Below are positions 6,088 through 43,118 of a stretch of DNA of 43,118 bases, one piece after another. A program made the position numbers and the translations under genes. How positions within the stretch are numbered: the stretch's first letter is position 1; each line of letters starts with the position of its first letter. The notes under the pieces are model-generated. The model ran no database searches. It was not told the origin of the DNA and worked only from the letters and a program-made list of their open reading frames with translations. Origin of the DNA: Candidatus Liptonbacteria bacterium (GTDB lineage Bacteria > Patescibacteriota > Minisyncoccia > UBA6257 > 2-01-FULL-56-20); contig VGJV01000006.1 in NCBI GenBank assembly GCA_016867315.1, positions 1-43,118 of the forward strand. Reading direction: 5' to 3'.

Positions 6088-7695
6088 ATGAAAAAAATCA
6101 TCGTCAATAAAGACGACACGACTTCCGCAGTGGTGCGGAAAATGTTGGGCACATTAGACAAGGACATTACGCTCGTGATTCCCAAAAACTCTAAAGTTGG
6201 TACCTCTCTCAATAATTTTCATATTTTAAATAGAGAAGCGGAAGCCGCCGGAAAGAAGCTCGCCGTGGAATCAGTGGACGAAGAAGTATTAGCCTACGCC
6301 AAAGTGGCTGGGTTAACTTCGGACCATCCCTTTTTAGGAAGACCGGGACTGCAAGATATCGTGCCTCGCACTAAGGCTTCGCCGGTAGAAATAGCAGCGC
6401 GTCACTTCAAGGAAGCTAAGACCAAATCTTCGCGAGGACGGAAAGCGGCGGTAAAGGAAGAAGAAGTGTTGCCAGAAGAAAAGCCTCAGGAGATTTTTCT
6501 TGCGCCGGTAAGGGAAGAGGAAGAAGTGAAACCTCATCGCCGAGGAAGCCGAAAATCGAGATGGACTATCTGGGCAGTGGGGGGAATGGTCGCAGTGGGG
6601 GCAGCAGGAATTTGGGCGGTAGGGGCATTTTGGGGGAGAGCAGAAGTGACAGTTCGCCTGGAAGAATACCCCTGGAGTTTGAAGAGCAACTTTGTCGCCG
6701 ATGCGACGGTTTCAAAGCCTAACGCAGCGCAGAAAATTCTCCCTGCGGAAGCCTTCTCGCTCGATCGCAATATCACTCAAACATTCCCAGCCGCCGGCGT
6801 GCAAAATGTAGAAGAGTCTGCTCAGGGCACAATCACGATTTATAACGCGTATAGTTCTACCGCGCAGGCGCTTGTGGCGACGACTCGCTTTACGACTTCG
6901 GACGGAAAAATCTTTCGTCTTAAAGAACGGGTGACAGTACCCGGCGCCACCGTAAAAGACGGAGCCATTACTCCTGCGAGCATTACGGCTACAGTGATTG
7001 CGGAGAAGGCCGGACCCTCCTACAATATAGGACCAGTTTCTCGGCTTACTATTCCCGCATTCAAAGGCACTCCGAAATATGATGGTTTTTACGGAGTACT
7101 CTCCGAGGGCGCGAAGGGTGGATTTATTGGAGCGAAAAAAGTAGCCACCGAACGAGATATCGCAGCAGCGAAAACGAAAACTGTGGAAATATTGAAAGGC
7201 AGTCTTGAAAGTCTTTTCATAGCAACGAAACCCAGTGGTTTCCATGTTCCGGAGGGGGCTATGAGTTTTATTTTAAAAAGAGTAGTAGTAAATGAGAAAA
7301 CAGACGCGCAGGGCAACTTCAATGTCTTCGGAGAAGCCACGCTTTCGGCAGTGGGGTTCCGCGAAGAAGATTTAGTGGAGCTTGTGAGGCAGTATGCCGC
7401 AACGGAGCGGGGAGGAGCACCGCTTACGTTCCGTTCTTTTGAATTCACTGCGAAGTCAATAAATCTTGATATTGCCGCCAAACGCAATACGTTTAGCGCA
7501 GATATAAATGCGGTGCTCACGACCGTTTTTGCCCCCGAAACATTCAAGGATTCCATTAAAAATCTTTCGGTAGAAAGCGCACAATCGGCGATCGGACGCA
7601 TCTCCGGGTTAGCGGAAGGGAAGGTTTCTTTATGGCCGTTTTGGATAAAAAGAGTGCCCGCGGACGCTTCTCGGATAGTCGTAAAAGTGGAATAA
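6088..7695 (+). CDS. Single-pass membrane protein, baseplate-J-like extracellular region
   Basis: 535 residues. The cytoplasmic N-terminal ~155 residues include a [20 protein letters not shown] start and a VIPKNSKVG segment, followed by a basic linker. One transmembrane helix runs about residues 159-181 ([13 protein letters not shown]...). The rest is an extracytoplasmic beta-rich region with [11 protein letters not shown] and [15 protein letters not shown], which resembles the 'baseplate J-like' domain annotated in many Patescibacteria membrane proteins. The role is not established; a cell-envelope or secretion-related scaffold is likely from topology. It is monocistronic, between alaS and the infA operon, which has its own promoter. 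Confidence 0.6.
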
Positions 7696-8548: not shown

Positions 8549-9016
8549 ATGGGTAAGACCAAAGTTACAGCTAAAGCTACGGATGAAGTAGTAAAACCCG
8601 CGACCGGAGAAGGGACTGTCTCTGCGACGGAAGCATCTCCTGCGGTCAAGGCGGAAAAGAAAGTGAAAGGCATCGAGCGCGGTCGGGTTTACATCAACGC
8701 GTCGTACAACAATACGACGATCACGGTAACCGACGCCTCGGGGAATGTGTTGGCTTGGGCCTCGGCGGGCTCTCTGGGTTTCTCAGGTCCTAAGAAAGCT
8801 ACCCCCTTCGCTTCTTCTAAGGTAATCGCGGCGCTCGGAGAAAAATTAAAATCCGCCTGGCCCGCGTCGCTGGAGATCGTGGTCAAGGGAGCGGGTTCCG
8901 GCCGAGATTCAGCGGTGCGCTCTCTTATCAATCATGGTTGTAACATCACGTCGATTAAGGATGTAACTCCGGTGCCTCACAACGGCCCTCGTCCCCCCAA
9001 AGTTCGCCGCGTTTAG
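8549..9016 (+). CDS. rpsK: 30S ribosomal protein S11
   Basis: 155 residues, against about 129 in E. coli. The first ~40 residues (Ala/Thr/Glu/Lys-rich) are an extra low-complexity extension. The conserved part begins GRVYINASYNNTTITVTD and ends ITSIKDVTPVPHNGPRPPK. S11 lies on the platform near the mRNA exit. The stop codon TAG overlaps the first two bases of a family B repeat arm (9015-9042), so the element has inserted at, or supplies, the end of the gene. Confidence 0.96.
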   Translation: MGKTKVTAKATDEVVKPATGEGTVSATEASPAVKAEKKVKGIERGRVYINASYNNTTITVTDASGNVLAWASAGSLGFSGPKKATPFASSKVIAALGEKLKSAWPASLEIVVKGAGSGRDSAVRSLINHGCNITSIKDVTPVPHNGPRPPKVRRV

Positions 9017-9042
9017 AAATTAGTAATTAGGAATTAGAAATT
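9015..9042 (+). repeat. Family B arm (AATTAG unit), copy 2
   Basis: Identical over 28 bases to 8130-8157. It overlaps the rpsK stop codon and ends 10 bases before the rpsD start. Confidence 0.85.
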
Positions 9043-25539: not shown

Positions 25540-26703
25540 CTAGATATTCAAACTCCCTTTCGCTGCCAACTTAAACTTTTTCTTGCGGAGATGTGCCATA
25601 TATCCGGCCACCGCGATCATCGCGGCATTGTCGGTATTGTACTCGGGTTCCGGCGCAAAAAACTTCGCGCCGATTTTTTTCGCTTCTTTCTCGAGCGCTT
25701 TACGGAGGGTTTTATTTGCCGCGACGCCGCCAGAGAGCATCACCGATTTCGCCCCGAATTCTTGTGCGGCCCGGATGGTTTTTTTGACGAGCACTTCTAT
25801 GGCAGCGGCCTGGAAACCTGCACTCACATCCTGAATTGTGAATTGAGAATTGCGAATTGAGTCGGATTCATTCCCAATTCCCAATGCACTATTCTCAATT
25901 CCCTTTACTTTTTGTTCTTTCAAAAAGTAAAGGACGGAAGTCTTCAGCCCCGAGAAGCTGAAATCATAATTTTTCTGATGGAGCATCGGCCGCGGGAATT
26001 CTACGGCCTTCGCATTGCCTTCTTTGGAAAGTTTCTCGATTTGAGGGCCGCCGGGGTAGGGGAGTTTTAAAAGTCGCGCGACTTTATCGAATGCTTCTCC
26101 CACCGCATCATCGCGCGTCTCGCCCAGCTTCTTCCAGGCCTTTAAGTTTTTCACATGCAAAAGGATAGTGTGTCCGCCGCTTACAATGAGCGAAATGGCC
26201 GGGAAGAGTTTGGAAGTAGGAAGTGAGAAGTGGGAAGCATTCTTTTTCTTTGAAAGAAGAAAACTGTAGAGGTGCCCTTCAAGATGGTTTGCTCCAATAA
26301 GTTTGATATTTGGATTTTGGATTTTGAGCTTTTCTTGCAAATCTTCAGCGAAAGTGATTCCTGTCCACAAAGCGGGTTCGAGTCCGGGGCCGACGGTCAC
26401 CGCGATGAGATCTACGTCGAGAATATTGAATTTAGAATTGAGAATTGAGTCGGATTTCTTTCCCAATTCCCAATTCCCAATTCCCAATTCGCCAAAAATC
26501 TTCCGATAGAGTATTGGAAGATTTTTAAGATGTTCTCTTTTGGCCAAGTTAGGAACTACGCCGCCAAATGGCTCATGGACTTTGATTTGAGAGGAAACGA
26601 GATTCTTCAAGACTCGAAACCGGGGCTTCGTAAGCCCTCCTTCTGCTTCTACGAGCGCCAGCGAAGTCTCGTCGCAGCTGGTTTCAATGCCGAGAATCAA
26701 CAT
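25540..26703 (-). CDS. tsaD: tRNA N6-threonylcarbamoyladenosine synthase TsaD, with repeat-encoded insertions
   Basis: 387 residues, against about 340 in the family. Core features: MLILGIETSCDETSLALV, GGVVPNLAKREH, GANHLEGH (metal-binding His pair), LIVSGGHT, FSFSGLKTSVL and VMLSGGVAANKTLR. TsaD transfers threonylcarbamoyl to A37 of ANN-decoding tRNAs. The extra length is explained by in-frame repeats: IGNWELGKKSDSILNSKFNI after residue ~73, a short HFSLPTSKLF stretch, and a near-repeat IGNESDSIRNSQFTIQ later. These fall in loops between conserved motifs, and no conserved residue is lost. It follows the ATP synthase operon. Confidence 0.93.
   Translation of the reverse strand: MLILGIETSCDETSLALVEAEGGLTKPRFRVLKNLVSSQIKVHEPFGGVVPNLAKREHLKNLPILYRKIFGELGIGNWELGKKSDSILNSKFNILDVDLIAVTVGPGLEPALWTGITFAEDLQEKLKIQNPNIKLIGANHLEGHLYSFLLSKKKNASHFSLPTSKLFPAISLIVSGGHTILLHVKNLKAWKKLGETRDDAVGEAFDKVARLLKLPYPGGPQIEKLSKEGNAKAVEFPRPMLHQKNYDFSFSGLKTSVLYFLKEQKVKGIENSALGIGNESDSIRNSQFTIQDVSAGFQAAAIEVLVKKTIRAAQEFGAKSVMLSGGVAANKTLRKALEKEAKKIGAKFFAPEPEYNTDNAAMIAVAGYMAHLRKKKFKLAAKGSLNI
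25831..25902 (-). repeat. Hairpin element E1 (GAATTGG family) inside tsaD
   Basis: Minus strand: a left arm of GAATTGAGAAT/GAATTGGGAAT units, core AATCCGACTC, and a right arm of CAATTCTCAATTC units. In frame. It shares AATCCGACTCAATTC with E2. Confidence 0.88.
26210..26237 (-). repeat. Family G tandem inside tsaD
   Basis: Minus strand CTTCCCACTTCTCACTTCC-type units encoding ASHFSLPTSK. Related to valS 23731-23760 but in the opposite sense relative to the gene. Confidence 0.7.
26422..26490 (-). repeat. Hairpin element E2 (GAATTGG family) inside tsaD
   Basis: Minus strand: four copies of GAATTGG, core AAATCCGACTC, and a right arm of AATTCTCAATTCTAAATTC. In frame. Same core as E1 in the same gene. 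Confidence 0.88.
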
Positions 26704-26706
26704 ATA

Positions 26707-26792
26707 AGAAAATAGAAATTAGAAATGTAGAAAGTAGAATGATTCAAAATGCATGCAGGCTTCTATTTTCTACTCTCTATTTTCTATTTTCC
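26707..26792. repeat. Hairpin element F1 (TTCTATTTTC family)
   Basis: Left arm GAAAATAGAAATTAG... (26707-26740), right arm TTCTATTTTCTACTCTC... (26761-26792), core with GCATGC. It lies between atpC and tsaD. The right arm encodes the last residues of AtpC (ENRK) and its stop. Confidence 0.82.
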
Positions 26793-27100: not shown

Positions 27101-28584
<1,484 letters not shown>

Positions 28585-28589
<5 letters not shown>

Positions 28590-29523
28590 TTTTGAGTGCC
28601 TCTGCGCCCGCAACGATTTCCGTGATTTCTTTGGTGATCGCGGCCTGACGCAGTTTGTTATACGTGATGGTGAGGGTTTGCACAAGCTCCGTGGCATTTT
28701 CCGAAGCGTTCTTCATTGCCATGCGGCGAGCCGCATGTTCCGAGGCATTGGCTTCCATAAAGAGGTGATACACCTGCATATGAAGAAGGTGCGACGCGAT
28801 GGCGCCGAGCACGCGCTCGGGCGTTGGCTCGATCAGGAAGCTTTTCGGAGCTTCCTTGCTCAATTCACTATTCTCAATTCTCAATTCCGAGAACCTTCCC
28901 GTCTCCGGCACAATCTCGTTAATAAGATCGGTAAGCGCCGCAGGCTCGATGGGTAAGATTTCCCGTTCGATGACTTCCTGGGTGAGCGCGGTGCGAAAGT
29001 GGGTAGAGAAGACAATCGCTCGATCGATAGCTCCCGCAACGTACTGCCGTTCCAAAACAGAAGCGATGGGGCTCACTTGGTCGGGGGTGGTGTAGTCTCC
29101 CGCGCGAACAAAAGATTCAAGTACTGCAAAACCCTGCTTTTCGAGATGCGCGTGCGCTTTCTTACCTACGGCCACAAAAAGATAATTCTGATTCTGTGGA
29201 GTGACGCCTTCCTTCTTGGCGAATTGATCGAAGCGGCGGAGGACGCTGCTGTTAAAGGACCCTGCGAGTCCCTTGTCGGAAGTCACGAGGACGACCGCGG
29301 TTCGCGCAGGTAATCGTTTCTGAAGAAGAGGAGGGGTTTTATCGGTTTCCTCAAGTGTAGCGAGCGTGCGAAGAAGATCGAGCGCCGCATACGCATAGGG
29401 CCGCGAACGAAGGGCGATTTCCTGGCTCCGCCGCATCTTCGTGGCGGCCACCAGTTCCATGGCCTTCGTGATTTGGGAGATGTTCTGCGCTCCCTTCATC
29501 CGTTGTTTGATGAACTGAAACAT
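28585..29523 (-). CDS. atpG: ATP synthase gamma subunit
   Basis: 312 residues, the rotor shaft. The N-terminal helix (QRMKGAQNISQITKAMELVAATKMRRSQ) and the C-terminal helix (RRMAMKNASENATELVQTLTITYNKLRQAAITKEITEIVAGAEAL) are canonical. The central Rossmann-like domain carries an in-frame family E arm (28858-28888) encoding SELRIENSELS, which accounts for part of the excess over ~290 residues. The stop is supplied by repeat C2. Confidence 0.96.
28858..28888 (-). repeat. Family E arm inside atpG, solo
   Basis: Minus strand GAATTGAGAATTGAGAATAG units, in frame, between the core helices of gamma. No partner arm and no AATCCGACTC core. Confidence 0.75.
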
Positions 29524-31144: not shown

Positions 31145-31215
31145 TTAACTAAATGACTAATGACCTATGACTGATAACCTATAACGTATTTGTCATAAGT
31201 TATAAGTCATAAGTC
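31145..31215. repeat. Hairpin element C3 (TGACTAATAAC family)
   Basis: Left arm 31145-31185, right arm 31191-31215, 5-base loop, in the atpH-atpA gap. It supplies the atpH stop codon (TGA). Confidence 0.88.
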
Positions 31216-31591: not shown

Positions 31592-31654
31592 GTAACTAAT
31601 GACTAATGACTTATAACTAAGCACAGGTCATTTGTCATAGGTCATAAGTTATTT
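31592..31654. repeat. Hairpin element C4 (TGACTAATAAC family)
   Basis: Left arm 31592-31620, right arm 31626-31654, in the atpF-atpH gap. The right arm supplies the atpF TAA stop. Confidence 0.88.
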
Positions 31655-32155
31655 GTTCGCGCGCGCGACTTGTTCTACTGCGCGCGTGATGAGTGCCTCA
31701 TCCACGGCCTTGGGATTCAACTCCACAGTTTTCACCAGCGCCTCTTTGACGAGAGTCACCGCTTCCCGGCGCATTTCCTGCTCCACTTTTTCCTGTTCCG
31801 CCTTGGCCAAGCGCTCCGCATTTGCTACGAGCTCGGCTTCCTTTTGTTTGGCGGTCTCGACACACTTCAATTCGAAGGCTTTTGCCCGAGCGTCCGCCTG
31901 CTGGAGCACGGTGAGTGCCTCCGCGTCGGCTTCTTTGAGTTTTTGAATCTTCAGCGTGTGCGCTTCTTTAAGCTGCGCCTCGGCTTCTTCGGCTTTTGCG
32001 AGCCCCTCCTTAATCTTCCTCTCTCGCTCTTTCATGAGGCGAAGAAGAGGTTTATAGGCGAAGAAGGTGAGGATAATCACAAGTAATCCAAAATTCACCG
32101 CCTGCGAGAGGAGGAGCCTCCAATCAATTCCTAATTGTGAGAGTAATTCATTCAT
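31649..32155 (-). CDS. atpF: ATP synthase b subunit
   Basis: 168 residues. One N-terminal transmembrane helix (about 14-32, LLLSQAVNFGLLVIILTFFAY) is followed by a long charged helix (RERKIKEGLAKAEEAEAQLKEAHTLKIQ...) that dimerises as the peripheral stalk. The length fits the family. The stop codon is supplied by repeat C4. Confidence 0.95.
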   Translation of the reverse strand: MNELLSQLGIDWRLLLSQAVNFGLLVIILTFFAYKPLLRLMKERERKIKEGLAKAEEAEAQLKEAHTLKIQKLKEADAEALTVLQQADARAKAFELKCVETAKQKEAELVANAERLAKAEQEKVEQEMRREAVTLVKEALVKTVELNPKAVDEALITRAVEQVARANK

Positions 32156-35675: not shown

Positions 35676-36083
35676 ATGTTTCCTCTTCTCTATATTTGGA
35701 GCGATTGGGGGATTCTTATTTTGAGAGTGTTTTTTGGAGCGATTATCGTAGTCCACGGCTGGCCGAAGATTAGGAATTGGGAAGAAACTGCGCGGAACTT
35801 CGAAGCTATGGGGTTCAAGCCGGGGAATGTATTGGGTCCGATCGTGGCAATCCTCGAATTCTTCGGAGGAATTGCTTTGATGGCTGGTTTCTACACTCAA
35901 CTCATTGCAGCACTTCTCGTAGTGCAGTTCATCGTAGCGACGATTTGGAAGATTAAAAACGGCCAAAAGTTGGTGGGAGGTTGGGAGCTCGATCTTATGC
36001 TCTTGGGCGCCGCAGTACTTTTTACAGTGCTCGGCGGAGGAGCGTTCTCCTTGGATCACCTCCTCTTTATGGGAAGCTTCTAA
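35676..36083 (+). CDS. DoxX-family membrane protein
   Basis: 135 residues with four transmembrane helices. GILILRVFFGAIIVVHGWPKIRNW, FKPGNVLGPIVAILEFFGGIALMAGFYTQLIAALLVVQFIVATIWK and LMLLGAAVLFTVLGGG are typical of DoxX. Family roles are poorly defined (redox or respiratory-chain associated). No other redox genes are adjacent. It starts six bases after the right arm of element B3. Confidence 0.85.
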   Translation: MFPLLYIWSDWGILILRVFFGAIIVVHGWPKIRNWEETARNFEAMGFKPGNVLGPIVAILEFFGGIALMAGFYTQLIAALLVVQFIVATIWKIKNGQKLVGGWELDLMLLGAAVLFTVLGGGAFSLDHLLFMGSF

Positions 36084-36189
36084 ATAGCAAGTAGCACGTA
36101 GCGAGTAGCAGGCGGAGGATAAAAATTATCCTTGTGTTTTGTGCCCTCCTGTTTCATGCTACTTGCTACATGCTACCCGCTACTCGCTC
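36084..36189. repeat. Hairpin element A3 (TAGCGAG family)
   Basis: Left arm AGCAAGTAGCACGTAGC... (36084-36110), right arm GCTACTTGCTACATGC... (36155-36189), complementary. The core of ~45 nt has its own small hairpin AGGATAA/TTATCCT. The right arm encodes the first residues of the glycosyltransferase. Confidence 0.88.
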
Positions 36190-37846
36190 GTCCCCATATC
36201 GCCTTTACGAATTCCTCCCCGGCGCGTTAGCCTGGGGAACCATCCTCCTGCTTCTTATCGGTTCTCGATTTGCCCCCCAAGCGGTGGGGATTTTTGTCGT
36301 TCTTTTCGGTGTCTATTGGCTCCTTAAATCCATTTATCTATCCATTCACATGCGGGCGGCTTTCAAAAAAATGAAAGCGAACCTCAAGGTGAACTGGCTC
36401 AAGGAACTAGAACTTATGACTCATGACAAAATGACATATGACCAAAGAAACAGTCATCAGTCATCAGTCATTAGTCATTGGTCAAGAGTACGCCATCTCG
36501 TTCTCTTCCCCATGTATAAAGAACCGTACGAGGTAGTAAGAGAAAGCTTTGCGAGTCTCGCCCGCGCTGAGTATCCCAAAGAACATTTTTTGGTGGTGCT
36601 CGCGACGGAGGCCCGAGCCGGAAAAGAAGCGGAGAGGGTTGTGGAAAAAATCCGGCAAGAATTCGGCAATTCTTTCGGCGGTTTTCTTATAACGACCCAT
36701 CCTGAAGGCCTCCCCGGAGAAATTCCCGGAAAAGGCGCAAATATTGCCTGGGCCACCCAGCGCGCCAAAGAAGAATTGATTGATCCGCTTATACGGCGCG
36801 AGAATAAGAATGAGTATGAGCATAATTCTCATTCTCATCCTTTATCTTCCCGCTCTCATCCTACCAACACATTCTCATACGAGAATGTGTTGGTGTCCGC
36901 CTTCGACATCGACACCCAAGCCCCTCCTCAGTATTTTGCCCGCCTCACGCATGCGTATCTCACAACCCCAGACCCGCTCCATGCGATTTATCAGCCTATT
37001 CCGCTCTTTACGAATAACATTTATGAAGCGCCCCTCCTTGCGCGCATCGTGACATTCTCGGCGACCTTTTGGCAGATGATGCAGCAGGCGCGGCCCGAGC
37101 GTCTCACCACTTTTTCTTCTCAATCGGTGCCCTTGAAAGTATTGAATGACGTAGGATTTTGGCATCGCGATGTGGTCTCCGAAGATTCGCGCATTTTTTG
37201 GCAGGCCTTTCTCCATTATCACGGGAATTTTCGGGTAGAACCTTTGGCATTCCCTGTGAGAATGGATGCGAACGTAGCCCCTACCTTCTGGGGGACGCTT
37301 AAAAATATTTATCGGCAACAGCGTCGCTGGGGGTGGGGAGTAGAGAATGTGCCCTATCTCTTGCATGGTTTTAAAAAGGATCATCTGATCCCCAAAGAAA
37401 AGAAGCGGTACTGGGCGTTCCTTACTCTCGAAGGCTTTCATTCCTGGTCCACTAATGCGTTCATTCTCTTTTTCTTAGGGTGGATGCCTTCTCTCATAGG
37501 TGGGGAAGAATTTCGCTCATCGCTCTTTTCTTATAACATCGGTGGTGTTACGCGAGTGATTATGATTATGGCCATGATCGGAGTTATCACCGCTGCAGAA
37601 ATTGCTTTGGCACTTTTGCCCCCACGCCCGTCGTGGTTCCGGCGCCGCCACGCATTCGTATACATTCTAGAGTGGCTCCTTTTACCCATCACGCTCATCT
37701 TTTTCGGCGCATTGCCTGGCTTGGAAGCTCAAACCCGTCTCATGCTGGGCGGGAAGTGGAGACTAGGTTTTTGGATTACTCCAAAAACGCGAAAGGGATT
37801 TAAAAAAATCGGGAAAGGGGTCGGGGAAACGGGAGTTTCCCCGTAG
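36134..37846 (+). CDS. Family 2 (cellulose-synthase-like) membrane glycosyltransferase with repeat-encoded insertions
   Basis: 570 residues from GTG 36134 (or ATG 36170; both lie in or near repeat A3). Two N-terminal and several C-terminal transmembrane helices surround a GT2 domain: LVLFPMYKEPYEVVRESFAS, GKGANIAWA, the D-x-D in SAFDIDTQAP, VVSEDSRIFWQ (acceptor ED) and the processivity motif QQRRW. Two in-frame insertions come from hairpin elements: MTHDKMTYDQRNSHQSSVIS (36413-36484) before the catalytic domain and about 32 residues, ENKNEYEHNSHSHP... (36797-36893), just before D-x-D. It probably makes a surface polysaccharide (inference). Confidence 0.85.
   Translation: MFCALLFHATCYMLPATRSSPYRLYEFLPGALAWGTILLLLIGSRFAPQAVGIFVVLFGVYWLLKSIYLSIHMRAAFKKMKANLKVNWLKELELMTHDKMTYDQRNSHQSSVISHWSRVRHLVLFPMYKEPYEVVRESFASLARAEYPKEHFLVVLATEARAGKEAERVVEKIRQEFGNSFGGFLITTHPEGLPGEIPGKGANIAWATQRAKEELIDPLIRRENKNEYEHNSHSHPLSSRSHPTNTFSYENVLVSAFDIDTQAPPQYFARLTHAYLTTPDPLHAIYQPIPLFTNNIYEAPLLARIVTFSATFWQMMQQARPERLTTFSSQSVPLKVLNDVGFWHRDVVSEDSRIFWQAFLHYHGNFRVEPLAFPVRMDANVAPTFWGTLKNIYRQQRRWGWGVENVPYLLHGFKKDHLIPKEKKRYWAFLTLEGFHSWSTNAFILFFLGWMPSLIGGEEFRSSLFSYNIGGVTRVIMIMAMIGVITAAEIALALLPPRPSWFRRRHAFVYILEWLLLPITLIFFGALPGLEAQTRLMLGGKWRLGFWITPKTRKGFKKIGKGVGETGVSP
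36413..36484 (+). repeat. Hairpin element C5 inside the glycosyltransferase
   Basis: Left arm 36413-36442 (ATGACTCATGAC units), right arm 36452-36484 (GTCATCAGTCATTAG units), 9-base loop, in frame. Confidence 0.85.
36800..36893 (+). repeat. Hairpin element D4 plus a second hairpin inside the glycosyltransferase
   Basis: Arms 36800-36822 and 36825-36840 (GAGAATAAGAATGAG against ATTCTCATTCTC). Right after, at about 36863-36894, comes a perfect 14-bp hairpin ACCAACACATTCTC-ATAC with its exact complement. All in frame. Confidence 0.82.
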
Positions 37847-37856
37847 CGGAAGTATT

Positions 37857-37988
37857 GTTGAAACCGAGGGGTTTCAAGGAGCGTAGGCGACGGGGTCGGG
37901 GGAGGGCGGGAGGCTTCCCCCGTGTAGGAAAGTCCGCCAGCTGGCGGATGTGGAGAACCGAGGGTTCTCCAGGAGCGCAGCGACGGTT
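37857..37988. repeat. Two copies of a compact palindromic repeat (family K) and a J palindrome
   Basis: Each K copy is a short hairpin (GAAACC-n-GGTTTC at ~37859; GAGAACC-n-GGTTCTC at ~37953) followed by AGGAGCG(T/C)AG and CGACGG. Between them a J palindrome TCCGCC-AGCT-GGCGGA (37932-37949). A CCCCGTGTAGGAA string here recurs near 11817. Confidence 0.6.
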
Positions 37989-38008
37989 TGTGGTGACGCC
38001 AAAGACAC

Positions 38009-38040
38009 GAGCAAGTAGCAGGTAGCGAGTAGCAAGTAGC
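38009..38040 (+). repeat. Left arm of element A4
   Basis: GAGCAAGTAGCAGGTAGCGA and further units, complementary to 38461-38495. It lies 24 bases upstream of the four-helix-bundle gene start. Confidence 0.88.
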
Positions 38041-38063
38041 AAAATAAAAGCTACAATGAGGAA

Positions 38064-38441
38064 ATGAATGGAAGTATTCAGTCCTATCGTGATTTAGGTG
38101 TGTGGCAAAAATCCAAAAGATATGCCGTGCGAGTGTATAAAATTACAGAAAAGTTTCCTCCTCATGAACTCTATGGACTGACGAGTCAGATGCGCCGCGC
38201 AGGCGTTTCTATTCCATCGGGCATTGCCGAAGGTTTTAGGAGAAAATCTAAAAAGGAAAAAGCTCAATTTTTGCGGATAGCATATGGGTCTGGCGCAGAA
38301 CTCGAGACTCAATTGGAAATAGGTCATGATTTGGGATACATCACTCCGGCGGAATACGAGGAGTTGGTAATAGAATTGGAAGAAATTATGAAAATGTTGA
38401 ATAAAAACATCGAAGTCTTAGAAAGTAATGTGATAAAATGA
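38064..38441 (+). CDS. Four-helix-bundle protein 1 (23S rRNA IVP / Avd-like)
   Basis: 125 residues of the TIGR02436 type. YRDLGVWQKSKRYAVRVYKI, the hallmark LTSQMRRAGVSIPSGIAEGF, then AQFLRIAYGSGAELETQLEIGHDLGYI. Known relatives are the ORFs in 23S rRNA intervening sequences and the accessory protein (bAvd) of diversity-generating retroelements, which forms a pentameric barrel and binds nucleic acid. No reverse transcriptase or rRNA is here. The gene sits between complementary family A arms (38009-38040 and 38461-38532). Its stop overlaps the prepilin ATG (ATGA). Confidence 0.9.
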   Translation: MNGSIQSYRDLGVWQKSKRYAVRVYKITEKFPPHELYGLTSQMRRAGVSIPSGIAEGFRRKSKKEKAQFLRIAYGSGAELETQLEIGHDLGYITPAEYEELVIELEEIMKMLNKNIEVLESNVIK

Positions 38442-39337
38442 ACTCGATGAAGCACTTCTTCGCTACTTGCTACTTGCTACTCGCTACTCGCTTGCATTCT
38501 GCTACTCGCTACTCGCTACTTGCTACTCGCTCTCAAAAAGGTTTTACAATTTTTGAGTTGATCATTTTCGCCGGGATTTTGACGCTCATCGTGGTGGCGT
38601 TCATCACGATCTTGGTTTCAATCACGCGAGTGCATGTCCGGCAATCGGCCGCGGCTGAAGTAAACCAGCAAAGCCAATTCGTCCTTCAGACCGTTCAGTA
38701 TTATGTGGAACAATCGAGCTTGATAGAGCTTGATGGCAATGCCGCGACGAGCACTCTGAAGCTTCGCATGGCCGCCACGTCTTCCGATCCTCTCTATATT
38801 TACGCGTCTGCCGGGGTGCTCTACCTCAAGGAAACGGACAGCGGGACTCCCGTCGCCCTTACTTCGAGCAAAGTTACCGTCTCAAACATCTCGTTTACGA
38901 AGCGGGAGCATGCGCGGGCCTCGGACTCGGTGAGCGTATCCTTCACGATTGCCTATAACACCGTGAACGCTCAGGAGCGTTTTTCCGAAACCTTGAACAC
39001 CGCCGTGGCGCGGGTGAATGCGGCGACCTTCGATTCGAACCTCATTCCTTCCTCGACTGCCCTCTACGATGTGGGGGTAACTTCGCAAATATGGCGCTCA
39101 GTCAATAATATTATTTACTTCAGCGGTGCGAATGTGGGCGTGGGAGTATCGAACCCCGGCCAAACCCTGGAGGTGAATGGGGGAGTGCGCTTGAACACGA
39201 CCACTTCGAAACCTACGTGTGACGCGGACCAGCGGGGTACGTTTTGGGTAACACAAGCGTCCGGAGGAGTGAAGGATTCGGTAGAGGTATGCGCCAAAAG
39301 CGCGGCCGACTCCTATGCGTGGAGAACCATCTACTGA
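38438..39337 (+). CDS. Prepilin-like protein with a repeat-encoded leader
   Basis: 299 residues. Type IV prepilin signature RSQKG-FTIFELIIFAGILT: cleavage after Gly35, Phe36 at +1, Glu40 at +5, then one hydrophobic helix. The 35-residue leader is unusually long, and residues ~9-32 (CYLLLATRLHSATRYSLLAT) are encoded by the right arm of element A4. The C-terminus has a tail-fibre-like motif VGVGVSNPGQTLEVNGG. It is probably a pseudopilin or surface adhesin. Translation may really start later than 38438; no better ATG lies close to the cleavage site. Confidence 0.8.
   Translation: MNSMKHFFATCYLLLATRLHSATRYSLLATRSQKGFTIFELIIFAGILTLIVVAFITILVSITRVHVRQSAAAEVNQQSQFVLQTVQYYVEQSSLIELDGNAATSTLKLRMAATSSDPLYIYASAGVLYLKETDSGTPVALTSSKVTVSNISFTKREHARASDSVSVSFTIAYNTVNAQERFSETLNTAVARVNAATFDSNLIPSSTALYDVGVTSQIWRSVNNIIYFSGANVGVGVSNPGQTLEVNGGVRLNTTTSKPTCDADQRGTFWVTQASGGVKDSVEVCAKSAADSYAWRTIY
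38461..38532 (+). repeat. Right arm of element A4, coding for the prepilin leader
   Basis: About eight GCTACTTGC/GCTACTCGC units, complementary to 38009-38040. Confidence 0.88.
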
Positions 39338-39370
39338 CGACTAATGACCTATAACTTATGACTGATGACA
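39335..39370 (+). repeat. Left arm of element C6
   Basis: GACTAATGACCTATAACTTA and further units. It begins with the prepilin TGA stop and contains the ATG (39358) of the next gene. It shares 16 exact complementary bases with the right arm. Confidence 0.88.
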
Positions 39371-39741
39371 AGGAGCATCAAAAACTCTTTCGTTTTCTCG
39401 AATGGGAAGTTTATAAAGATGCGCAGTCCGTATTTTTAGAAGTTTTGAAGGTTGTTGAAGACTTACCACAATCATTGAGATTTACCTTAGGAAGCCAAAT
39501 AGTGCGCGCTGCCTTGTCGATTGTGCTGAATATTGCGGAAGGGAGTGGTAGAAATACGGACAAAGAATTAAATAGATTTTTTGATATTGCTATCGGTTCC
39601 ATTAATGAAACGGTGGCTGCTTTAGATACTCTTATGAAAGGGAAATTTTTATCTCCCGAACGGTTCCAAATACTCTTTAGAAGACTAAGTAGTATTTCTC
39701 GCCAGTTAGGTGGATTTAAAAAGTCTATCCAGCAGTCCTAA
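39358..39741 (+). CDS. Four-helix-bundle protein 2 (23S rRNA IVP / Avd-like)
   Basis: 127 residues. FLEWEVYKDAQSVFLEVLKV, the hallmark LGSQIVRAALSIVLNIAEGSGR, and RFFDIAIGSINETVAALDTL. It is clearly the same family as protein 1 but diverged. The start codon and the first residues (MTDDKE) lie within the left arm of element C6, and the right arm begins directly at the stop codon, so gene and arms form one compact unit of about 460 bp. Confidence 0.88.
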   Translation: MTDDKEHQKLFRFLEWEVYKDAQSVFLEVLKVVEDLPQSLRFTLGSQIVRAALSIVLNIAEGSGRNTDKELNRFFDIAIGSINETVAALDTLMKGKFLSPERFQILFRRLSSISRQLGGFKKSIQQS

Positions 39742-39792
39742 GTCGTGCGTCATAAGTTATAGGTTATTTGTTATCAGTCATTAGTCATAAAT
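39742..39792 (+). repeat. Right arm of element C6
   Basis: GTCATAAGTTATAGG-type units, complementary to 39335-39370; it abuts the stop of the four-helix-bundle gene. Confidence 0.88.
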
Positions 39793-39861
39793 CAAAGACA
39801 TTCTTCTCATTGTGTACAACTTCAATTTGCGTGTGACTTCGCCACAGAATAAGATAATGTT

Positions 39862-40416
39862 GTGGAGAACAAAAAAGTGCTGGTCGCCGGAGTGGTGGGA
39901 ATCGTAGTACTCACGGGAATTGCCTTTCTCGCCGCCTCGAAGCGTCCCGCTTCGCCTTCGCCGGTCGGAGCAGGAAAAGTAATTCCGCCGGAAAAGCAAT
40001 TGCCGCTGGGAGAATCGACTCGCACCGCCGCTCCTCAAAATATAGTGGTGCCCGATGAGAAAACGACGGGAGCAGCGGCAAATGTCGCGATTCCCAAAAC
40101 GACTGGCCCTGGAGATGTAGCGAATACCTCCACGTTTCGGAGTTATGAGATAAAAGTAGAAAAGAATAAATTTATTCCCGACACGGTGATCGTAAAGCAG
40201 GGAGATGCGGTAAAGATCGAATTTCTGGCCGTAGATAAAGAATATGATGTCACGCAGGCGGATTATGGGTTTAAGCTCCAGCTTCCCAAGGGAGTAAAGA
40301 AGACGTTGGGATTCAGCGCCGCAGGTCAGGGAGATTTTCTCTTTTATTGCACGCTCTGTGGGGGACCGGAAGAAGGTCCCAAAGGTCACATAATAGTTAC
40401 GAGTCCAAAACAATAA
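39862..40416 (+). CDS. Cupredoxin-like secreted/anchored protein 1
   Basis: 184 residues from GTG 39862. An N-terminal hydrophobic segment (VLVAGVVGIVVLTGIAFLA) is followed by a Pro/Ala-rich linker and a cupredoxin-fold domain: YEIKVEKNKFIPDTVIVKQGDAVKIEF and FLFYCTLCGGPEEGPKGHIIV. The C-terminal ligand loop has Cys-x2-Cys and a His ten residues on. The usual first His after the second strand is missing (VDKEYDVTQADYGF). Metal binding is thus unusual or redox through Cys only. Paralogue at 41145. Confidence 0.75.
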   Translation: MENKKVLVAGVVGIVVLTGIAFLAASKRPASPSPVGAGKVIPPEKQLPLGESTRTAAPQNIVVPDEKTTGAAANVAIPKTTGPGDVANTSTFRSYEIKVEKNKFIPDTVIVKQGDAVKIEFLAVDKEYDVTQADYGFKLQLPKGVKKTLGFSAAGQGDFLFYCTLCGGPEEGPKGHIIVTSPKQ

Positions 40417-40424
40417 TCAATAAA

Positions 40425-40513
40425 ATTCCTAATTACTAATTTCTAATTCCTAGAAATTGAGGTTTGAACATTGGGAATTAGTTAGAAATTAGATCAATTA
40501 GAAATTAGAAATT
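40425..40513. repeat. Hairpin element B4 (AATTAGA family)
   Basis: Left arm 40425-40456, right arm 40471-40513. It ends one base before the ATG of the next gene. The right arm shares 27 bases with B3 with one mismatch. Confidence 0.88.
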
Positions 40514-40514
40514 T

Positions 40515-41039
40515 ATGCCAAGATACAGAATCCCTGAAGAACCAAAAGTCGAACCGGAGCAACCGCTCCGCAATTACCAATTTGAAACGCGCAAATCCAT
40601 GACGCGACGATTTAAAATATTTCTTGGGGTATTGGTGTTGGTCCTTGTGCTTTTGGGGGTATGGGCAGGTTCTCTCCTTTCCGCTAAAAAAGACGCTTCG
40701 GGGTACACCGCAGTATTCCTGGTAACGGGTGACGTTTATTTCGGCAAGCTTTCCTGGTTCCCATGGCCCAAACTTACGCACGCCTGGTTCTTGCAGCGTA
40801 GCGTAGGACAGGACAACCAGCCTCAGTTGGGACTCGCCCCATTTACGTCTGTATTCTGGGGACCGGCGGGGGATGTATACCTGAACCCGAAGCAGATCCT
40901 TTTCTGGGCGCCGATCAAGTCTGACAGCCAAGTGGCGAAGGCGATAGACAATCCGTCTTCGATACAACAACAGACTCCGCCCCAAGGTCAGGTTCCGCCC
41001 CAGCAAGAGCAGCAGCCCTCAAACGGAACCAAGAAGTAG
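40515..41039 (+). CDS. Hypothetical single-pass membrane protein
   Basis: 174 residues. A charged cytoplasmic N-terminus, one transmembrane helix at about 36-54 (FLGVLVLVLVLLGVWAGSLL), an extracytoplasmic domain with YTAVFLVTGDVYFGKLSWFPWPKL and FWGPAGDVYLNPKQILFWAPI, and a Gln/Pro-rich tail. I recall similar unnamed proteins in CPR genomes but no function. It lies between two cupredoxin-like genes and ends at a terminator. Confidence 0.6.
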   Translation: MPRYRIPEEPKVEPEQPLRNYQFETRKSMTRRFKIFLGVLVLVLVLLGVWAGSLLSAKKDASGYTAVFLVTGDVYFGKLSWFPWPKLTHAWFLQRSVGQDNQPQLGLAPFTSVFWGPAGDVYLNPKQILFWAPIKSDSQVAKAIDNPSSIQQQTPPQGQVPPQQEQQPSNGTKK

Positions 41040-41044
41040 TGAGT

Positions 41045-41077
41045 AAAATCCGTCCGTGTAATGCGGGCGGATTTTTT
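41045..41077 (+). terminator. Terminator
   Basis: AAATCCGTCC with GGGCGGATTT, then a T run, right after the stop at 41039. Confidence 0.8.
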
Positions 41078-41091
41078 GTTGAGCACTGTTC

Positions 41092-41126
41092 TAGTCATGC
41101 GTTATCAGTCATAAGTCATAAGTTGG
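41092..41126 (+). repeat. Family C arm, solo
   Basis: GTCATGCGTTATCAGTCATA and further units, similar to the right arm of C6. No complementary arm is adjacent. Confidence 0.75.
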
Positions 41127-41144
41127 ATGTGATACACTAATGAT

Positions 41145-41690
41145 ATGAGCAACAAAACCGCCCTCGTTATTGCGATCGTGGGAATCGTGATAGTTGCAGT
41201 AGTGGGAATAGCCGCCGTGATGTTGAAGACCTCGGGAACTCCCGAAGCAAAACCCGGCACCCCGGTATCCGCCCCTACCTCGTCGGGGACGCGCCAAGCT
41301 GCGCCGGTGAACGTAGTGGTGCCTGAAGTGGGAGCTAAGAATGCGCCTGCAAACGTGGCAGTCCCTCAAATTTCGACCGAGGTCGCAAGAGACGCTGCCG
41401 CGGCGGGTAATTTCCGAGTATTCGACATGAAAGTGGAGGGGGACGCCTTCGTACCCAATACGGTAATCGTGAACCAGGGAGATTCAGTGCGCGTGAATAT
41501 TACGGCCACAGACAAAGATTACGAATTTACTCAGCCGGAATTGGGATATAATTTCCCGCTCGTGAAAGGGAAAAAAATGCCCCTAGCCTTCACTGCGACG
41601 AGCGCCAGCGATTTTCTATTCTATTGCGGAAGCTGCGGCGGTCCCCAAAAAGGACCGAAGGGACACATCATTGTGGCACCGAAGAAATAA
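41145..41690 (+). CDS. Cupredoxin-like secreted/anchored protein 2
   Basis: 181 residues, paralogue of 39862-40416. Signal anchor at about 6-26, Pro/Ala/Val-rich linker, and cupredoxin fold with MKVEGDAFVPNTVIVNQGDSVRV and FLFYCGSCGGPQKGPKGHIIV. The same Cys-x2-Cys-GGP-x2-GPKGH loop is conserved, and the first copper His is again missing (TDKDYEFTQPELGYNF). Conservation of this odd loop in both copies argues for function. Confidence 0.75.
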   Translation: MSNKTALVIAIVGIVIVAVVGIAAVMLKTSGTPEAKPGTPVSAPTSSGTRQAAPVNVVVPEVGAKNAPANVAVPQISTEVARDAAAAGNFRVFDMKVEGDAFVPNTVIVNQGDSVRVNITATDKDYEFTQPELGYNFPLVKGKKMPLAFTATSASDFLFYCGSCGGPQKGPKGHIIVAPKK

Positions 41691-41717
41691 GAGAATGAGT
41701 ATGAGAATGAGAATGAA
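41690..41717 (+). repeat. Left arm of element D6
   Basis: GAGAATGAGTATGAGAATGA units directly after the cupredoxin stop, 13 bases before the four-helix-bundle gene. Confidence 0.82.
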
Positions 41718-41729
41718 GGAAGGTAAGAA

Positions 41730-42107
41730 ATGAGAGACAAATACGGCTTTTACTTTCGGGACTGGGACGTATATAAAGATTCGCTTGAGTTTCGAAAAAA
41801 GATTCTGAAATTACTCAAGAAATATCCAAAAGAAGAGTTATTTGCGCTTAGCGATCAAACTAAAAGAGCCTTGAATTCAATCGTGCTGGCGATTGCCGAG
41901 GGTGCGAATAAAATAACAAAGAAAGACACTCGCGTATACATCAACCGTGCACACTGCTCGCTGGATGAGGTTATTGCTTGTCTTGATTGTGCATTATCGG
42001 ATGGATATATAAGTTCAGAAGAACACGAAGTGGCTTTAAGAGAGGGGGAAAGCCTTGCGAAGCGGCTTCATGCTTTTGTAATGCACCTGACCCGTCTCTC
42101 CTCATAA
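41730..42107 (+). CDS. Four-helix-bundle protein 3 (23S rRNA IVP / Avd-like)
   Basis: 125 residues. FRDWDVYKDSLEFRKKILKLL, the hallmark LSDQTKRALNSIVLAIAEGANK, and INRAHCSLDEVIACLDCAL. Same family as proteins 1 and 2 with low mutual identity. It is preceded by a family D arm; the complementary arm (42278-42303) lies 170 bases after the stop, beyond the promoter and start of the next gene. Confidence 0.85.
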   Translation: MRDKYGFYFRDWDVYKDSLEFRKKILKLLKKYPKEELFALSDQTKRALNSIVLAIAEGANKITKKDTRVYINRAHCSLDEVIACLDCALSDGYISSEEHEVALREGESLAKRLHAFVMHLTRLSS

Positions 42108-42171
42108 CCTCCCTCATTTTGTTGTATGAATGTAATACGCGTTATCCACAGTTCGATGTCAAGATAACTCT

Positions 42172-42177
42172 GTATAA
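42172..42177 (+). promoter_or_regulatory. -10 element of the terminal secreted-protein gene
   Basis: A perfect TATAAT. The GTG start follows 15 bases later; no good -35. Confidence 0.45.
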
Positions 42178-42192
42178 TAAGAATACAACTCC

Positions 42193-43118
42193 GTGCAATT
42201 GAATAATCATCTCAAATCCGCGCTTGAGGGAAAGTGTATTAGGCTTGTTAAATTCCTTTTCTCGCGTTATCACTGTTCCTCATTCTCATTTCTCATTCTC
42301 ATCCTTGCGGCCTTTGCCGCTGCGCCTTCGGCGCAGGCGTTTGATGGTCCCAAAAACGCTCCCGGTATTGGCCCCGGCGCCTTCAGCTATAGCAGCAGCC
42401 GGTTTGCCATCGGCACCTCCACACCATTCCAAGATGCAAGATTTATCATCATCACCTCTTCTTCGCTCTGGACGAGTTCTTCAAGTCCCCAAAGCGAGTA
42501 TGCCTTCAAGGTAGTAAACAGTCCTTGTCCGGGAGGGCAGAGCCAATGTCCGCCGGTGTTCTCAATCCGGAACGACGGCGCGGTAATTATGGGAGGAGCG
42601 AACACCGGTACGGACCCCACCTATAACGTGCCATTCGACAAGCCGCCGAACTCCACCTATCATCGTGGTCTTACGGTCTGGGGTCCCGCGTTCGTAAAAG
42701 GCTCCATGAACGCCATGGACTTCTTAGGGGGGAATATTAGCCCCACACTGCTCCGCTCGGGTATTTTTGACGACAAGGGCTTCAACGGCCCATTTGCATT
42801 TCGCGGTTCGCTCGCGATTGCGACTACCACGAAAGACGCGATTCCGCAGCCGCTTTCGGTGTATGGAAGCGCGTACGTGAGCGGCAACGTCGGCATCGGG
42901 ACGACGGGGCCGTCGCATCCTCTCACCACCAGCCGTCCTCTCGCAACGGTGTGGTACCCAGATATCCGTGTTGGCGGCTATCAGGGCAATGACGCCGCAT
43001 ATATCGGTTCGCACAACGACAACCAGCTCATTCTTTCAGCTGGCGGCGAAACAAGCGATAACACAAACACCGGAACCTTCGCAACTGCGAGAGCCGCGAC
43101 AGCTGCATTCATAACGAT
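42193..43118 (+). CDS. Secreted surface protein with a tail-fibre-like motif, runs off the window
   Basis: Open to the last base; start is GTG 42193 or TTG 42199, after an in-frame TAA upstream. The signal peptide has the hydrophobic core FSFLILILAAFAA, cleaved probably after PSAQA. The mature part is Ser/Gly/Pro-rich with AIGTSTPFQDARF and NVGIGTTGPSHPL, the VGIGTxxP motif seen in tail-fibre and surface proteins and similar to one in the prepilin-like protein (VGVGVSNPGQTL). The hydrophobic core of the signal peptide is encoded by the family D repeat arm at 42278-42303. Confidence 0.7.
   Translation, partial: MQLNNHLKSALEGKCIRLVKFLFSRYHCSSFSFLILILAAFAAAPSAQAFDGPKNAPGIGPGAFSYSSSRFAIGTSTPFQDARFIIITSSSLWTSSSSPQSEYAFKVVNSPCPGGQSQCPPVFSIRNDGAVIMGGANTGTDPTYNVPFDKPPNSTYHRGLTVWGPAFVKGSMNAMDFLGGNISPTLLRSGIFDDKGFNGPFAFRGSLAIATTTKDAIPQPLSVYGSAYVSGNVGIGTTGPSHPLTTSRPLATVWYPDIRVGGYQGNDAAYIGSHNDNQLILSAGGETSDNTNTGTFATARAATAAFIT
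42278..42303 (+). repeat. Right arm of element D6, coding for a signal peptide core
   Basis: CTCATTCTCATTTCTCATTC units, complementary to 41690-41717, in frame as FSFLILI. Confidence 0.8.

What the first reader, a model, noticed from the sequence alone, without database searches (positions are those of the whole stretch)
38009..42303. IVS-like hairpin elements carrying four-helix-bundle genes outside rRNA: a candidate new element class
Three diverged TIGR02436-type genes (38064, 39358, 41730) each lie between complementary arms, and each uses a different arm family (A: TAGCGAG; C: TGACTAATAAC; D: GAGAATGAGTAT). The same three families occur elsewhere in the window as ORF-less hairpins. Relatives of these proteins are known from 23S rRNA intervening sequences, where the ORF is in the loop of a hairpin, and as bAvd in diversity-generating retroelements. 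Here there is no rRNA, no reverse transcriptase and no transposase. My inference is that each protein acts on its own arm family, with ORF-less copies as dependent elements.
Basis: partly seen in the sequence, partly recalled or inferred. Interest (0 to 1): 0.95.

Follow-up and report, generated by a model that had tools for sequence, protein, structure and literature searches.

The report
Transposase-less mobile hairpin elements
The three small genes each sit in a mobile element of about 460-615 bases, ended by complementary arms of short tandem repeats; the same kind of element recurs across bacteria and archaea, usually inserts at the stop codon of another gene, carries no known transposase, and may explain both orphan heptamer repeats and the 23S rRNA intervening sequences.

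Summary
Each of the three PF05635/TIGR02436 genes lies between complementary arms (0 of 500 shuffles as good, each). The arms are degenerate tandem repeats, usually 7 nt, sometimes 8 (6 in the third element). Among 77 such genes in related CPR genomes, 66% have such arms, against 1% for mismatched loci, 3% for ParE genes, 0% for other positions nearby and 0 of 13 for RT-linked Avd relatives. In 80 loci from other phyla and archaea it is 54%; cyanobacterial plasmids 10 of 12. Arm plus gene plus arm behaves as one insertion unit: three archaeal copies share only that unit, and complete cyanobacterial plasmids give empty sites at about 91-93% flank identity. [quoted passage not shown] Arm type tracks protein clade; in the host genome 40% of ORF-less arrays match arms of resident elements. 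The protein is under purifying selection. Best reading: a recombinase-free mobile element class with dependent hairpins, of which rRNA intervening sequences may be a special case. How it moves, and whether the protein binds its arms, is not shown.

The parts
38009..38051 (+). left arm of element A, heptamer unit TAGCRAG
   Evidence: (I1): score 28, 0/500 shuffles
38064..38441 (+). PF05635 gene of element A (125 aa)
   Evidence: 23S_rRNA_IVP E 1e-40, TIGR02436 E 5e-39
38459..38532 (+). right arm of element A (two runs of CTCGCTA units), overlapping the extended 5' end of the prepilin ORF
39333..39369 (+). left arm of element C, unit TGACTAA; starts on the TGA stop codon of the upstream prepilin gene
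   Evidence: score 20, 0/500 shuffles
39358..39741 (+). PF05635 gene of element C (127 aa); its start lies inside the arm
   Evidence: E 8e-26
39742..39794 (+). right arm of element C
41692..41721 (+). left arm of element D, 6-nt unit GAATGA; follows directly on the TAA stop of the upstream cupredoxin-like ORF
   Evidence: score 18, 0/500 shuffles; (period 6)
41730..42107 (+). PF05635 gene of element D (125 aa)
   Evidence: E 7e-23
42276..42305 (+). right arm of element D
38438..39337 (+). prepilin-like gene between elements A and C; orthologous locus used for the filled / decayed / empty comparison
36085..36188 (.). ORF-less hairpin, family A
   Evidence: score 15-16
36412..36484 (.). ORF-less hairpin, family C, read in frame in the glycosyltransferase-like ORF 36134-37846
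36806..36880 (.). ORF-less hairpin, family D, read in frame in the same ORF
   Evidence: D3, D14
28499..28593 (.). ORF-less hairpin, family C, starting at the atpG-like stop codon (minus strand)
   Evidence: score 15.5
31152..31215 (.). ORF-less hairpin, family C, at the atpH-like stop codon (minus strand)
31595..31657 (.). ORF-less hairpin, family C, at the atpF-like stop codon (minus strand)
25832..25920 (.). ORF-less hairpin inserted in frame in tsaD (second loop)
26421..26490 (.). ORF-less hairpin inserted in frame in tsaD (first loop)
26707..26791 (.). ORF-less hairpin, unit TAGAAAA, between tsaD and the atpC-like gene
   Evidence: score 20.5
40424..40513 (.). ORF-less hairpin, unit AATTAGG, between the first cupredoxin-like ORF and the next ORF
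   Evidence: score 17
9013..9042 (+). period-7 array TTAGAAATTAGTAATTAGG whose first TAG is the rpsK stop codon (no partner arm found)

Best explanation
Each of the three genes is the single gene of a small mobile element. The unit, about 460-615 bp here, is: left arm, PF05635 gene, right arm. The arms are inverted copies of a degenerate tandem repeat (unit usually 7 or 8 nt) with fixed polarity: a TAG/TAA/TGA- or AG-containing strand reads towards the gene on the left. SHOWN: the unit is what is gained or lost between relatives and what recurs at unrelated sites; [quoted passage not shown] the left arm tends to supply stop codons in all three frames; the protein is under purifying selection; arms and protein are inherited together; many ORF-less hairpins carry the arms of resident elements. 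INFERRED: the element is expressed as part of the host operon by re-initiation after the stop codon; the protein (a pentameric four-helix-bundle ring in its solved relative) binds the hairpin formed by the arms, more likely as single-stranded DNA than as sense RNA, and helps host replication or repair enzymes copy it into a new gene end; ORF-less hairpins are dependent copies; 23S rRNA intervening sequences with the same protein are the rRNA-resident form of the same kind of element.
For: Association: arm score >=14 in 66% of 77 PF05635 genes against 1% cross-locus, 3% ParE, 0% pseudo-sites; 54% in 80 loci from many phyla and archaea against 1.8% cross-locus; 0 of 13 for Avd genes next to reverse transcriptases in related genomes. 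Unit: L163 (ANME-1), L181 (Methanomicrobiales) and L384 share 85-89% identity over about 511 bp that begins and ends with the arms, flanks unrelated; two copies in G004. Presence/absence: sites C and D empty in congener G002, site A decayed in G001; clean empty sites in complete cyanobacterial plasmids with about 91-93% flank identity, plus an ORF-less hairpin at the same left boundary in Nostoc ATCC 53789. Stop codons: 88 of 100 elements have a same-strand ORF stop within -45..+60 nt of the left-arm start, against 16% of random points; 63 anchored by same-strand stops at the left arm against 6 by opposite-strand stops at the right arm, p = 4e-13; stops in 3 frames in 58% of left arms, 26% of right arms, 15% of shuffles. 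Co-inheritance. dN/dS 0.06-0.15. Resident-arm match of ORF-less arrays. Period-7 density in element-rich relatives above element-less ones, p = 0.002.
Against: No movement has been observed and no target-site duplication was found. 34-46% of PF05635 genes lack arms at the threshold (26% at a looser one). Element A itself is not at a stop codon (160 nt behind the upstream ORF). 60% of ORF-less arrays in G000 match no resident element, and G042 has arrays but no PF05635 gene. Arms rich in stop codons would also end any ORF they interrupt, so part of the stop-codon signal could be truncation; orthologue comparisons argue against this only at the few sites examined. Arm-protein tracking can come from plain co-inheritance. 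Unit length is 6 or 9 in 5 of 76 cases, so three-frame stops cannot be the whole rule. Some archaeal copies come from MAGs whose binning may be wrong.
Confidence: 0.72

Rival explanations
1. The hairpins are made and spread by another machinery (repeat slippage, a reverse transcriptase or a transposase acting in trans) and the PF05635 gene is a passenger caught between two arms.
For: 60% of ORF-less arrays in G000 match no resident PF05635 arm; G042 has arrays without the gene; the genome has one RT and one rve integrase.
Against: G000 has no Y1 or DDE_Tnp_1 transposase. Many element-rich relatives lack RT and Y1. Y1 genes carry ordinary REP palindromes, not tandem arms. The gene is one specific family under purifying selection with orientation fixed towards the anchoring gene; RT-linked Avd cousins have no arms; arms track the protein.
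Confidence: 0.13
2. A host-serving RNA-binding regulator: the protein binds mRNA hairpins at gene ends and controls stability or translation within operons; ORF-less hairpins are its regulon, and the arms of its own gene are autoregulatory.
For: Hairpins sit inside operons at gene boundaries, e.g. in the atp operon; known relatives in 23S rRNA are cleaved as RNA by RNase III (PMC4990558); orientation follows transcription.
Against: Arm differences do not favour G-U pairs on the sense RNA: 63 wobble against 104 A-C mismatches, p = 0.002 in the opposite direction. Neighbour genes are unrelated from site to site; elements come and go between congeners and plasmids; hairpins also lie inside proteins.
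Confidence: 0.1
3. Retro-mobility: the transcript of the element folds through its arms and is reverse-transcribed by a DGR-type or other RT in trans, with the PF05635 protein as an Avd-like partner; insertion at stop codons reflects the RNA intermediate.
For: Homology to Avd (PMC10053308); sense orientation relative to the anchoring gene; an RT in this genome.
Against: Many element-rich relatives have no RT (e.g. G002, G006, G021, G022, G025, G037). No sense-RNA pairing signature.
Confidence: 0.08
4. Chance or compositional artefact: low-complexity flanks that happen to be complementary.
For: The arms are simple repeats, and element D's arms are modest.
Against: 0/500 shuffles for each of the three; 66% against 0-3% in matched controls; period 7 unique in the genome.
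Confidence: 0.01

Closest known systems
23S rRNA intervening sequences (IVS) with an S23/IVP ORF (Leptospira, Coxiella; PMC4990558)
   Same: One PF05635 ORF in the loop of complementary termini, similar size (Coxiella 428-444 nt, 28-bp stem), ORF-less versions exist, sporadic distribution; a mobile-element origin had been proposed (Ralph and McClelland 1993, as cited in PMC4990558).
   Different: Here there is no rRNA; the arms are degenerate tandem repeats; the sites are protein-gene ends, mostly stop codons; empty sites and dispersed copies are shown. Whether rRNA IVS arms have the same repeat structure was not tested.
RAYT / REPIN (Y1 transposase with REP palindromes)
   Same: One gene flanked by inverted repeats, with many gene-less hairpins of the same kind in the genome.
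   Different: No Y1 or any recombinase domain; arms are tandem repeats, not single REP palindromes. Y1 loci in the same relatives do show REP palindromes.
bAvd of diversity-generating retroelements
   Same: Homologous four-helix-bundle protein (PF22296 hit at E 1e-5; PMC10053308).
   Different: No adjacent RT, TR or VR. Avd genes next to RTs have no arms (0/13).
Cyanobacterial and other heptamer repeats (STRR; GGGAATC in Xanthomonas/Nostoc, PMC4692102; TAACTGA in Beggiatoaceae, PMC4679880)
   Same: Dispersed heptamer arrays, often intergenic; for TAACTGA, stops in all three frames and overlap with upstream stop codons were noted.
   Different: Described as repeats without known origin; neither paper, searched for the terms, links them to hairpin arms around an IVP gene.
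Rickettsia palindromic elements (RPE)
   Same: Palindromic insertions tolerated in frame inside proteins (recalled from general knowledge), as here in tsaD.
   Different: No gene-bearing form and no heptamer arms are known to me for RPE; not compared by sequence here.

Membership tests
23S rRNA intervening sequence (IVS) | PF05635/S23 ORF between complementary termini | tested here: met
23S rRNA intervening sequence (IVS) | located inside an rRNA gene | tested here: not met
   no Rfam hit at 36000-43118; 20 other loci gave only one tRNA
23S rRNA intervening sequence (IVS) | excised from RNA by RNase III | not testable with these tools
   needs RNA data
Diversity-generating retroelement (Avd) | adjacent reverse transcriptase, TR and VR | tested here: not met
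   the only PF00078 match lies on another contig (C4:57914)
Diversity-generating retroelement (Avd) | Avd-type protein above the family cut-off | tested here: not met
   PF22296 26.0 and 25.0 bits against a cut-off of 40; NF033474 33.4 or less against 80
RAYT/REPIN | Y1 (HUH) transposase gene between the repeats | tested here: not met
   no PF01797 match in the whole genome
Insertion sequence / MITE | recombinase in the element or in the same genome | tested here: inconclusive
   none in the element; no DDE_Tnp_1, one rve; other families not searched
Insertion sequence / MITE | target-site duplication | tested here: not met
   none seen at the L163/L181 or Calothrix junctions
Mobile element (general) | discrete unit present or absent at orthologous sites | tested here: met
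Mobile element (general) | same unit at unrelated sites | tested here: met

The most novel reading that the evidence does not exclude
A recombinase-free class of mobile element found in bacteria and archaea, in which a ring-forming four-helix-bundle protein recognises tandem-repeat hairpin arms of its own clade and, with host enzymes only, copies the element to the stop codons of other genes. It would be the source of many 'orphan' heptamer repeats and of rRNA intervening sequences.
Probability: 0.4. Interest if true: 0.97.

Novelty: categorically new. Interest (0 to 1): 0.92.

Why it matters
PF05635 proteins are common and have no known function, and how rRNA intervening sequences spread has been open for decades. 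If this is right, they are the gene of a widespread mobile element that carries no recombinase, targets stop codons and leaves dependent hairpins that even extend host proteins in frame. That would give one origin for heptamer repeats reported separately in cyanobacteria, Xanthomonas and sulfur bacteria, and a testable function for the protein family: binding to its own arms. It would also point to a way of moving DNA without a dedicated transposase.

Tried and rejected
Chance complementarity: rejected by shuffles and four kinds of control. RAYT/REPIN: rejected for this genome, no Y1 transposase; Y1 neighbours elsewhere have REP palindromes. DGR membership: rejected. Sense-RNA hairpin selection: tested through the G-U against A-C asymmetry and not supported. 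rRNA context: Rfam on 20 arm-poor loci found no rRNA, so the rRNA form could not be compared. A broad alignment was too diverse for the contig scan; a narrower one worked. No PF05635 relative in the phage collection. The L384 site in G061 is not a clean empty site: one arm stays and another hairpin replaced the gene. A first TsaD alignment used wrong strands and was redone. No structure was predicted: the fold is known from relatives 2gsc and 2rld.
Full report
WHAT IS THERE. The three genes at 38064, 39358 and 41730 are members of PF05635/TIGR02436. Each lies between complementary arms: A 38009-38051 / 38490-38532, C 39333-39369 / 39742-39794, D 41692-41721 / 42276-42305. Arm alignments score 28, 20 and 18; none of 500 dinucleotide-preserving shuffles of the same flanks reached these values. 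The arms are degenerate tandem repeats: TAGCRAG (A), TGACTAA (C), and a six-base unit GAATGA (D). In 426 kb of the same genome, period-7 arrays number 106 against 0-12 at any other period from 4 to 15 except 14, and 2 in a shuffle. The genome is 879 kb in 14 contigs and holds six PF05635 genes; it lies among CPR bacteria, to judge by the named relatives.

IS THE LINK REAL? For 77 PF05635 genes from this genome and relatives of the same order I aligned 250 nt upstream with the reverse complement of 250 nt downstream. 66% score 14 or more; controls give 1% (left and right flanks from different loci), 3% (29 ParE toxin genes), 0% (232 shifted positions in the same loci) and 10% for direct instead of inverted repeats. 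In 80 named loci from a contig scan (CPR, Bacteroidota, Omnitrophota, Planctomycetes, Acidobacteria, Kiritimatiellota, Clostridia, ANME-1 and methanogen archaea) it is 54% in Bacteroidota and 54% in the rest (my Bacteroidota label wrongly included one Acidobacterium), against 1.8% cross-locus. On cyanobacterial plasmids 10 of 12 have arms. The sharpest control is the sister family: 13 Avd-type genes next to reverse transcriptases in related genomes, none with arms. Arm autocorrelation peaks at 7, 14 and 21 (0.59, 0.60, 0.57 against about 0.29). Confident unit lengths: 7 in 54, 8 in 13, 10 in 3, 6 in 3, 9 in 2, 4 in 1.

IT IS A UNIT THAT COMES AND GOES. Copies in an ANME-1 genome (L163), a Methanomicrobiales genome (L181) and a second ANME-1-type genome (L384) are 85-89% identical over about 511 bp, starting and ending with the arms, in unrelated surroundings. 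G004 holds two copies, 82% identical over 403 bp. In two congeners the orthologous region of the window was read. Between the glycosyltransferase-like and prepilin genes, G000 has element A, G001 a decayed version, G002 an ORF-less hairpin of another family. Behind the prepilin gene, G000 has element C, G001 another repeat element beginning at the stop codon, G002 nothing. Behind the second cupredoxin-like gene, G000 has element D and G002 nothing. Base-level empty sites come from complete plasmids: Calothrix NIES-22 has the element between an integrase gene and the next gene (GAGGAAG|AATAAAAGGGTATAGGG...ACACCCTTACTCT|ATGCCC), whereas Tolypothrix PCC 7601 (92.7% identical), Aulosira (90.9%) and N. 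carneum (90.7%) read straight through (Tolypothrix GAGGAAG|TGGAGTAGGAG|ATGCCC). At a second site N. edaphicum and Nostoc C052 carry the element, Nostoc C057 is empty, and ATCC 53789 carries an ORF-less hairpin with the same left boundary. No target-site duplication was seen; about 11 nt were replaced in Calothrix. ORF-less hairpins also move: in TsaD they are in-frame loop insertions in G000, absent in most relatives, with other insertions in others.

WHERE IT INSERTS. Of 100 elements with arms, 88 have the stop codon of a same-strand ORF (80 aa or more) within -45 to +60 nt of the left-arm start, most within about 15 nt, against 16% of random points; often the stop codon is itself the first repeat unit. 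Because the element is an inverted repeat, both of its ends look alike, so orientation can be tested: 63 elements are anchored only by a same-strand stop at the left arm, 6 only by an opposite-strand stop at the right arm, 16 by both, 13 by neither (p = 4e-13). Genome-wide in G000, 19% of all period-7 arrays begin within 10 nt of a same-sense gene stop against 1.3% of random points; in the window's atp operon three gene boundaries carry such hairpins. Left arms contain stops in all three frames in 58% of cases, right arms 26%, shuffled left arms 15%. Units of 7, 8 or 10 place the stop triplet in every frame, a plausible reason for those lengths, but 5 of 76 units are multiples of three, element D among them. 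Elements C and D sit at stop codons; element A does not. Caution: an array rich in stops ends any ORF it meets. That the upstream genes are complete was checked only for the prepilin and the plasmid sites.

WHAT GOES WITH WHAT. Arm similarity rises with protein identity: 0.6% of pairs with similar arms below 30% identity, 31% at 70-80%, 100% above 80% (Mantel r 0.24, 0 of 500 permutations). Unit length changes 10 times on the protein tree against 19.5 for shuffled labels, minimum 15. ORF-less arrays resemble resident arms: 40% of 99 in G000 against 3% for arms of a foreign genome, and per arm 0.083 against 0.009 over nine genomes, p = 0.027. Period-7 density is higher in element-rich than in element-less relatives (p = 0.002). 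Against a strict dependence: 60% of G000 arrays match no resident element, and G042 has arrays without the gene. The protein is conserved by selection, dN/dS 0.06-0.15 in six pairs.

HOW IT PROBABLY WORKS. Shown: unit, insertion polymorphism, anchoring, orientation, co-inheritance, purifying selection. Inferred: expression by re-initiation behind the host gene's stop codon; arm recognition by the protein (its solved relative 2gsc is a homopentamer of four-helix bundles according to PMC4990558); copying by host enzymes. The substrate is more likely DNA than sense RNA: arm differences that would be G-U pairs in the sense RNA are fewer (63) than those that would be A-C mismatches (104), p = 0.002, which is the opposite of what selection on a sense-RNA hairpin predicts. 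This could reflect a hairpin of the other strand or a mutational bias. A trans-acting transposase is not needed for the pattern in G000 as far as tested: no Y1, no DDE_Tnp_1, one rve, one RT.

COMPARISON WITH THE KNOWN. In gene and architecture it works like the 23S rRNA intervening sequences, but it fails that family's defining feature (position in rRNA), so I do not file it there; I think the IVS is a special case of this class. It works like RAYT/REPIN in having gene-bearing and gene-less forms, but has no transposase. It is not a DGR. Heptamer repeats are known (PMC4692102, PMC4679880, cyanobacterial STRR) but were not tied to this gene in the papers read. MacGregor's Beggiatoaceae paper did note that TAACTGA repeats give stops in three frames and overlap upstream stop codons. 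I searched only open-access papers, so an earlier description in a subscription journal cannot be excluded.

Noticed in passing
window 37810-37892: A GC-rich stretch (GGGAAAGGGGTCGGGGAAACGGGAGTTTCC...) between the glycosyltransferase-like gene and element A recurs in many copies in congeners G001, G002 and others: another dispersed intergenic repeat, not period-7.
   Followed up: no
window 42879-42912: A motif of about 33 bp in the last ORF recurs more than 15 times in G001 (contigs C7, C20) and several times in G002, as if part of a repeated surface-protein module.
   Followed up: no
L446 1489-1848 and L448 1483-1851: On Pseudanabaena and Anabaena plasmids the PF05635 element sits between cas6 and cas4 of a CRISPR locus (annotated type I-D in L448); PMC10910872 lists 23S rRNA IVP among domains near CRISPR loci. 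The arms suggest insertion rather than a CRISPR role.
   Followed up: partly
L415 (G061:C127 about 6140-6330): An ORF-less hairpin with ACACAGATTTACACGG... repeats replaces the element at an ANME-1 site; perhaps another arm family of the same kind.
   Followed up: no
L256 and L257 (G042): G042 has period-7 arrays at 25 per 100 kb but no PF05635 gene: relics, or a different driver.
   Followed up: no
L014, L015, L018: The PF05635 ORF reads through its right arm in frame into a prepilin-like or membrane-protein gene, giving predicted fusions; elements recur in front of orthologous prepilin genes in several genomes with different arm families.
   Followed up: partly
L206-L231: Y1 transposase genes in CPR relatives are flanked by classical REP palindromes (GGAAGTCSGACTTCC type), a separate system.
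   Followed up: partly
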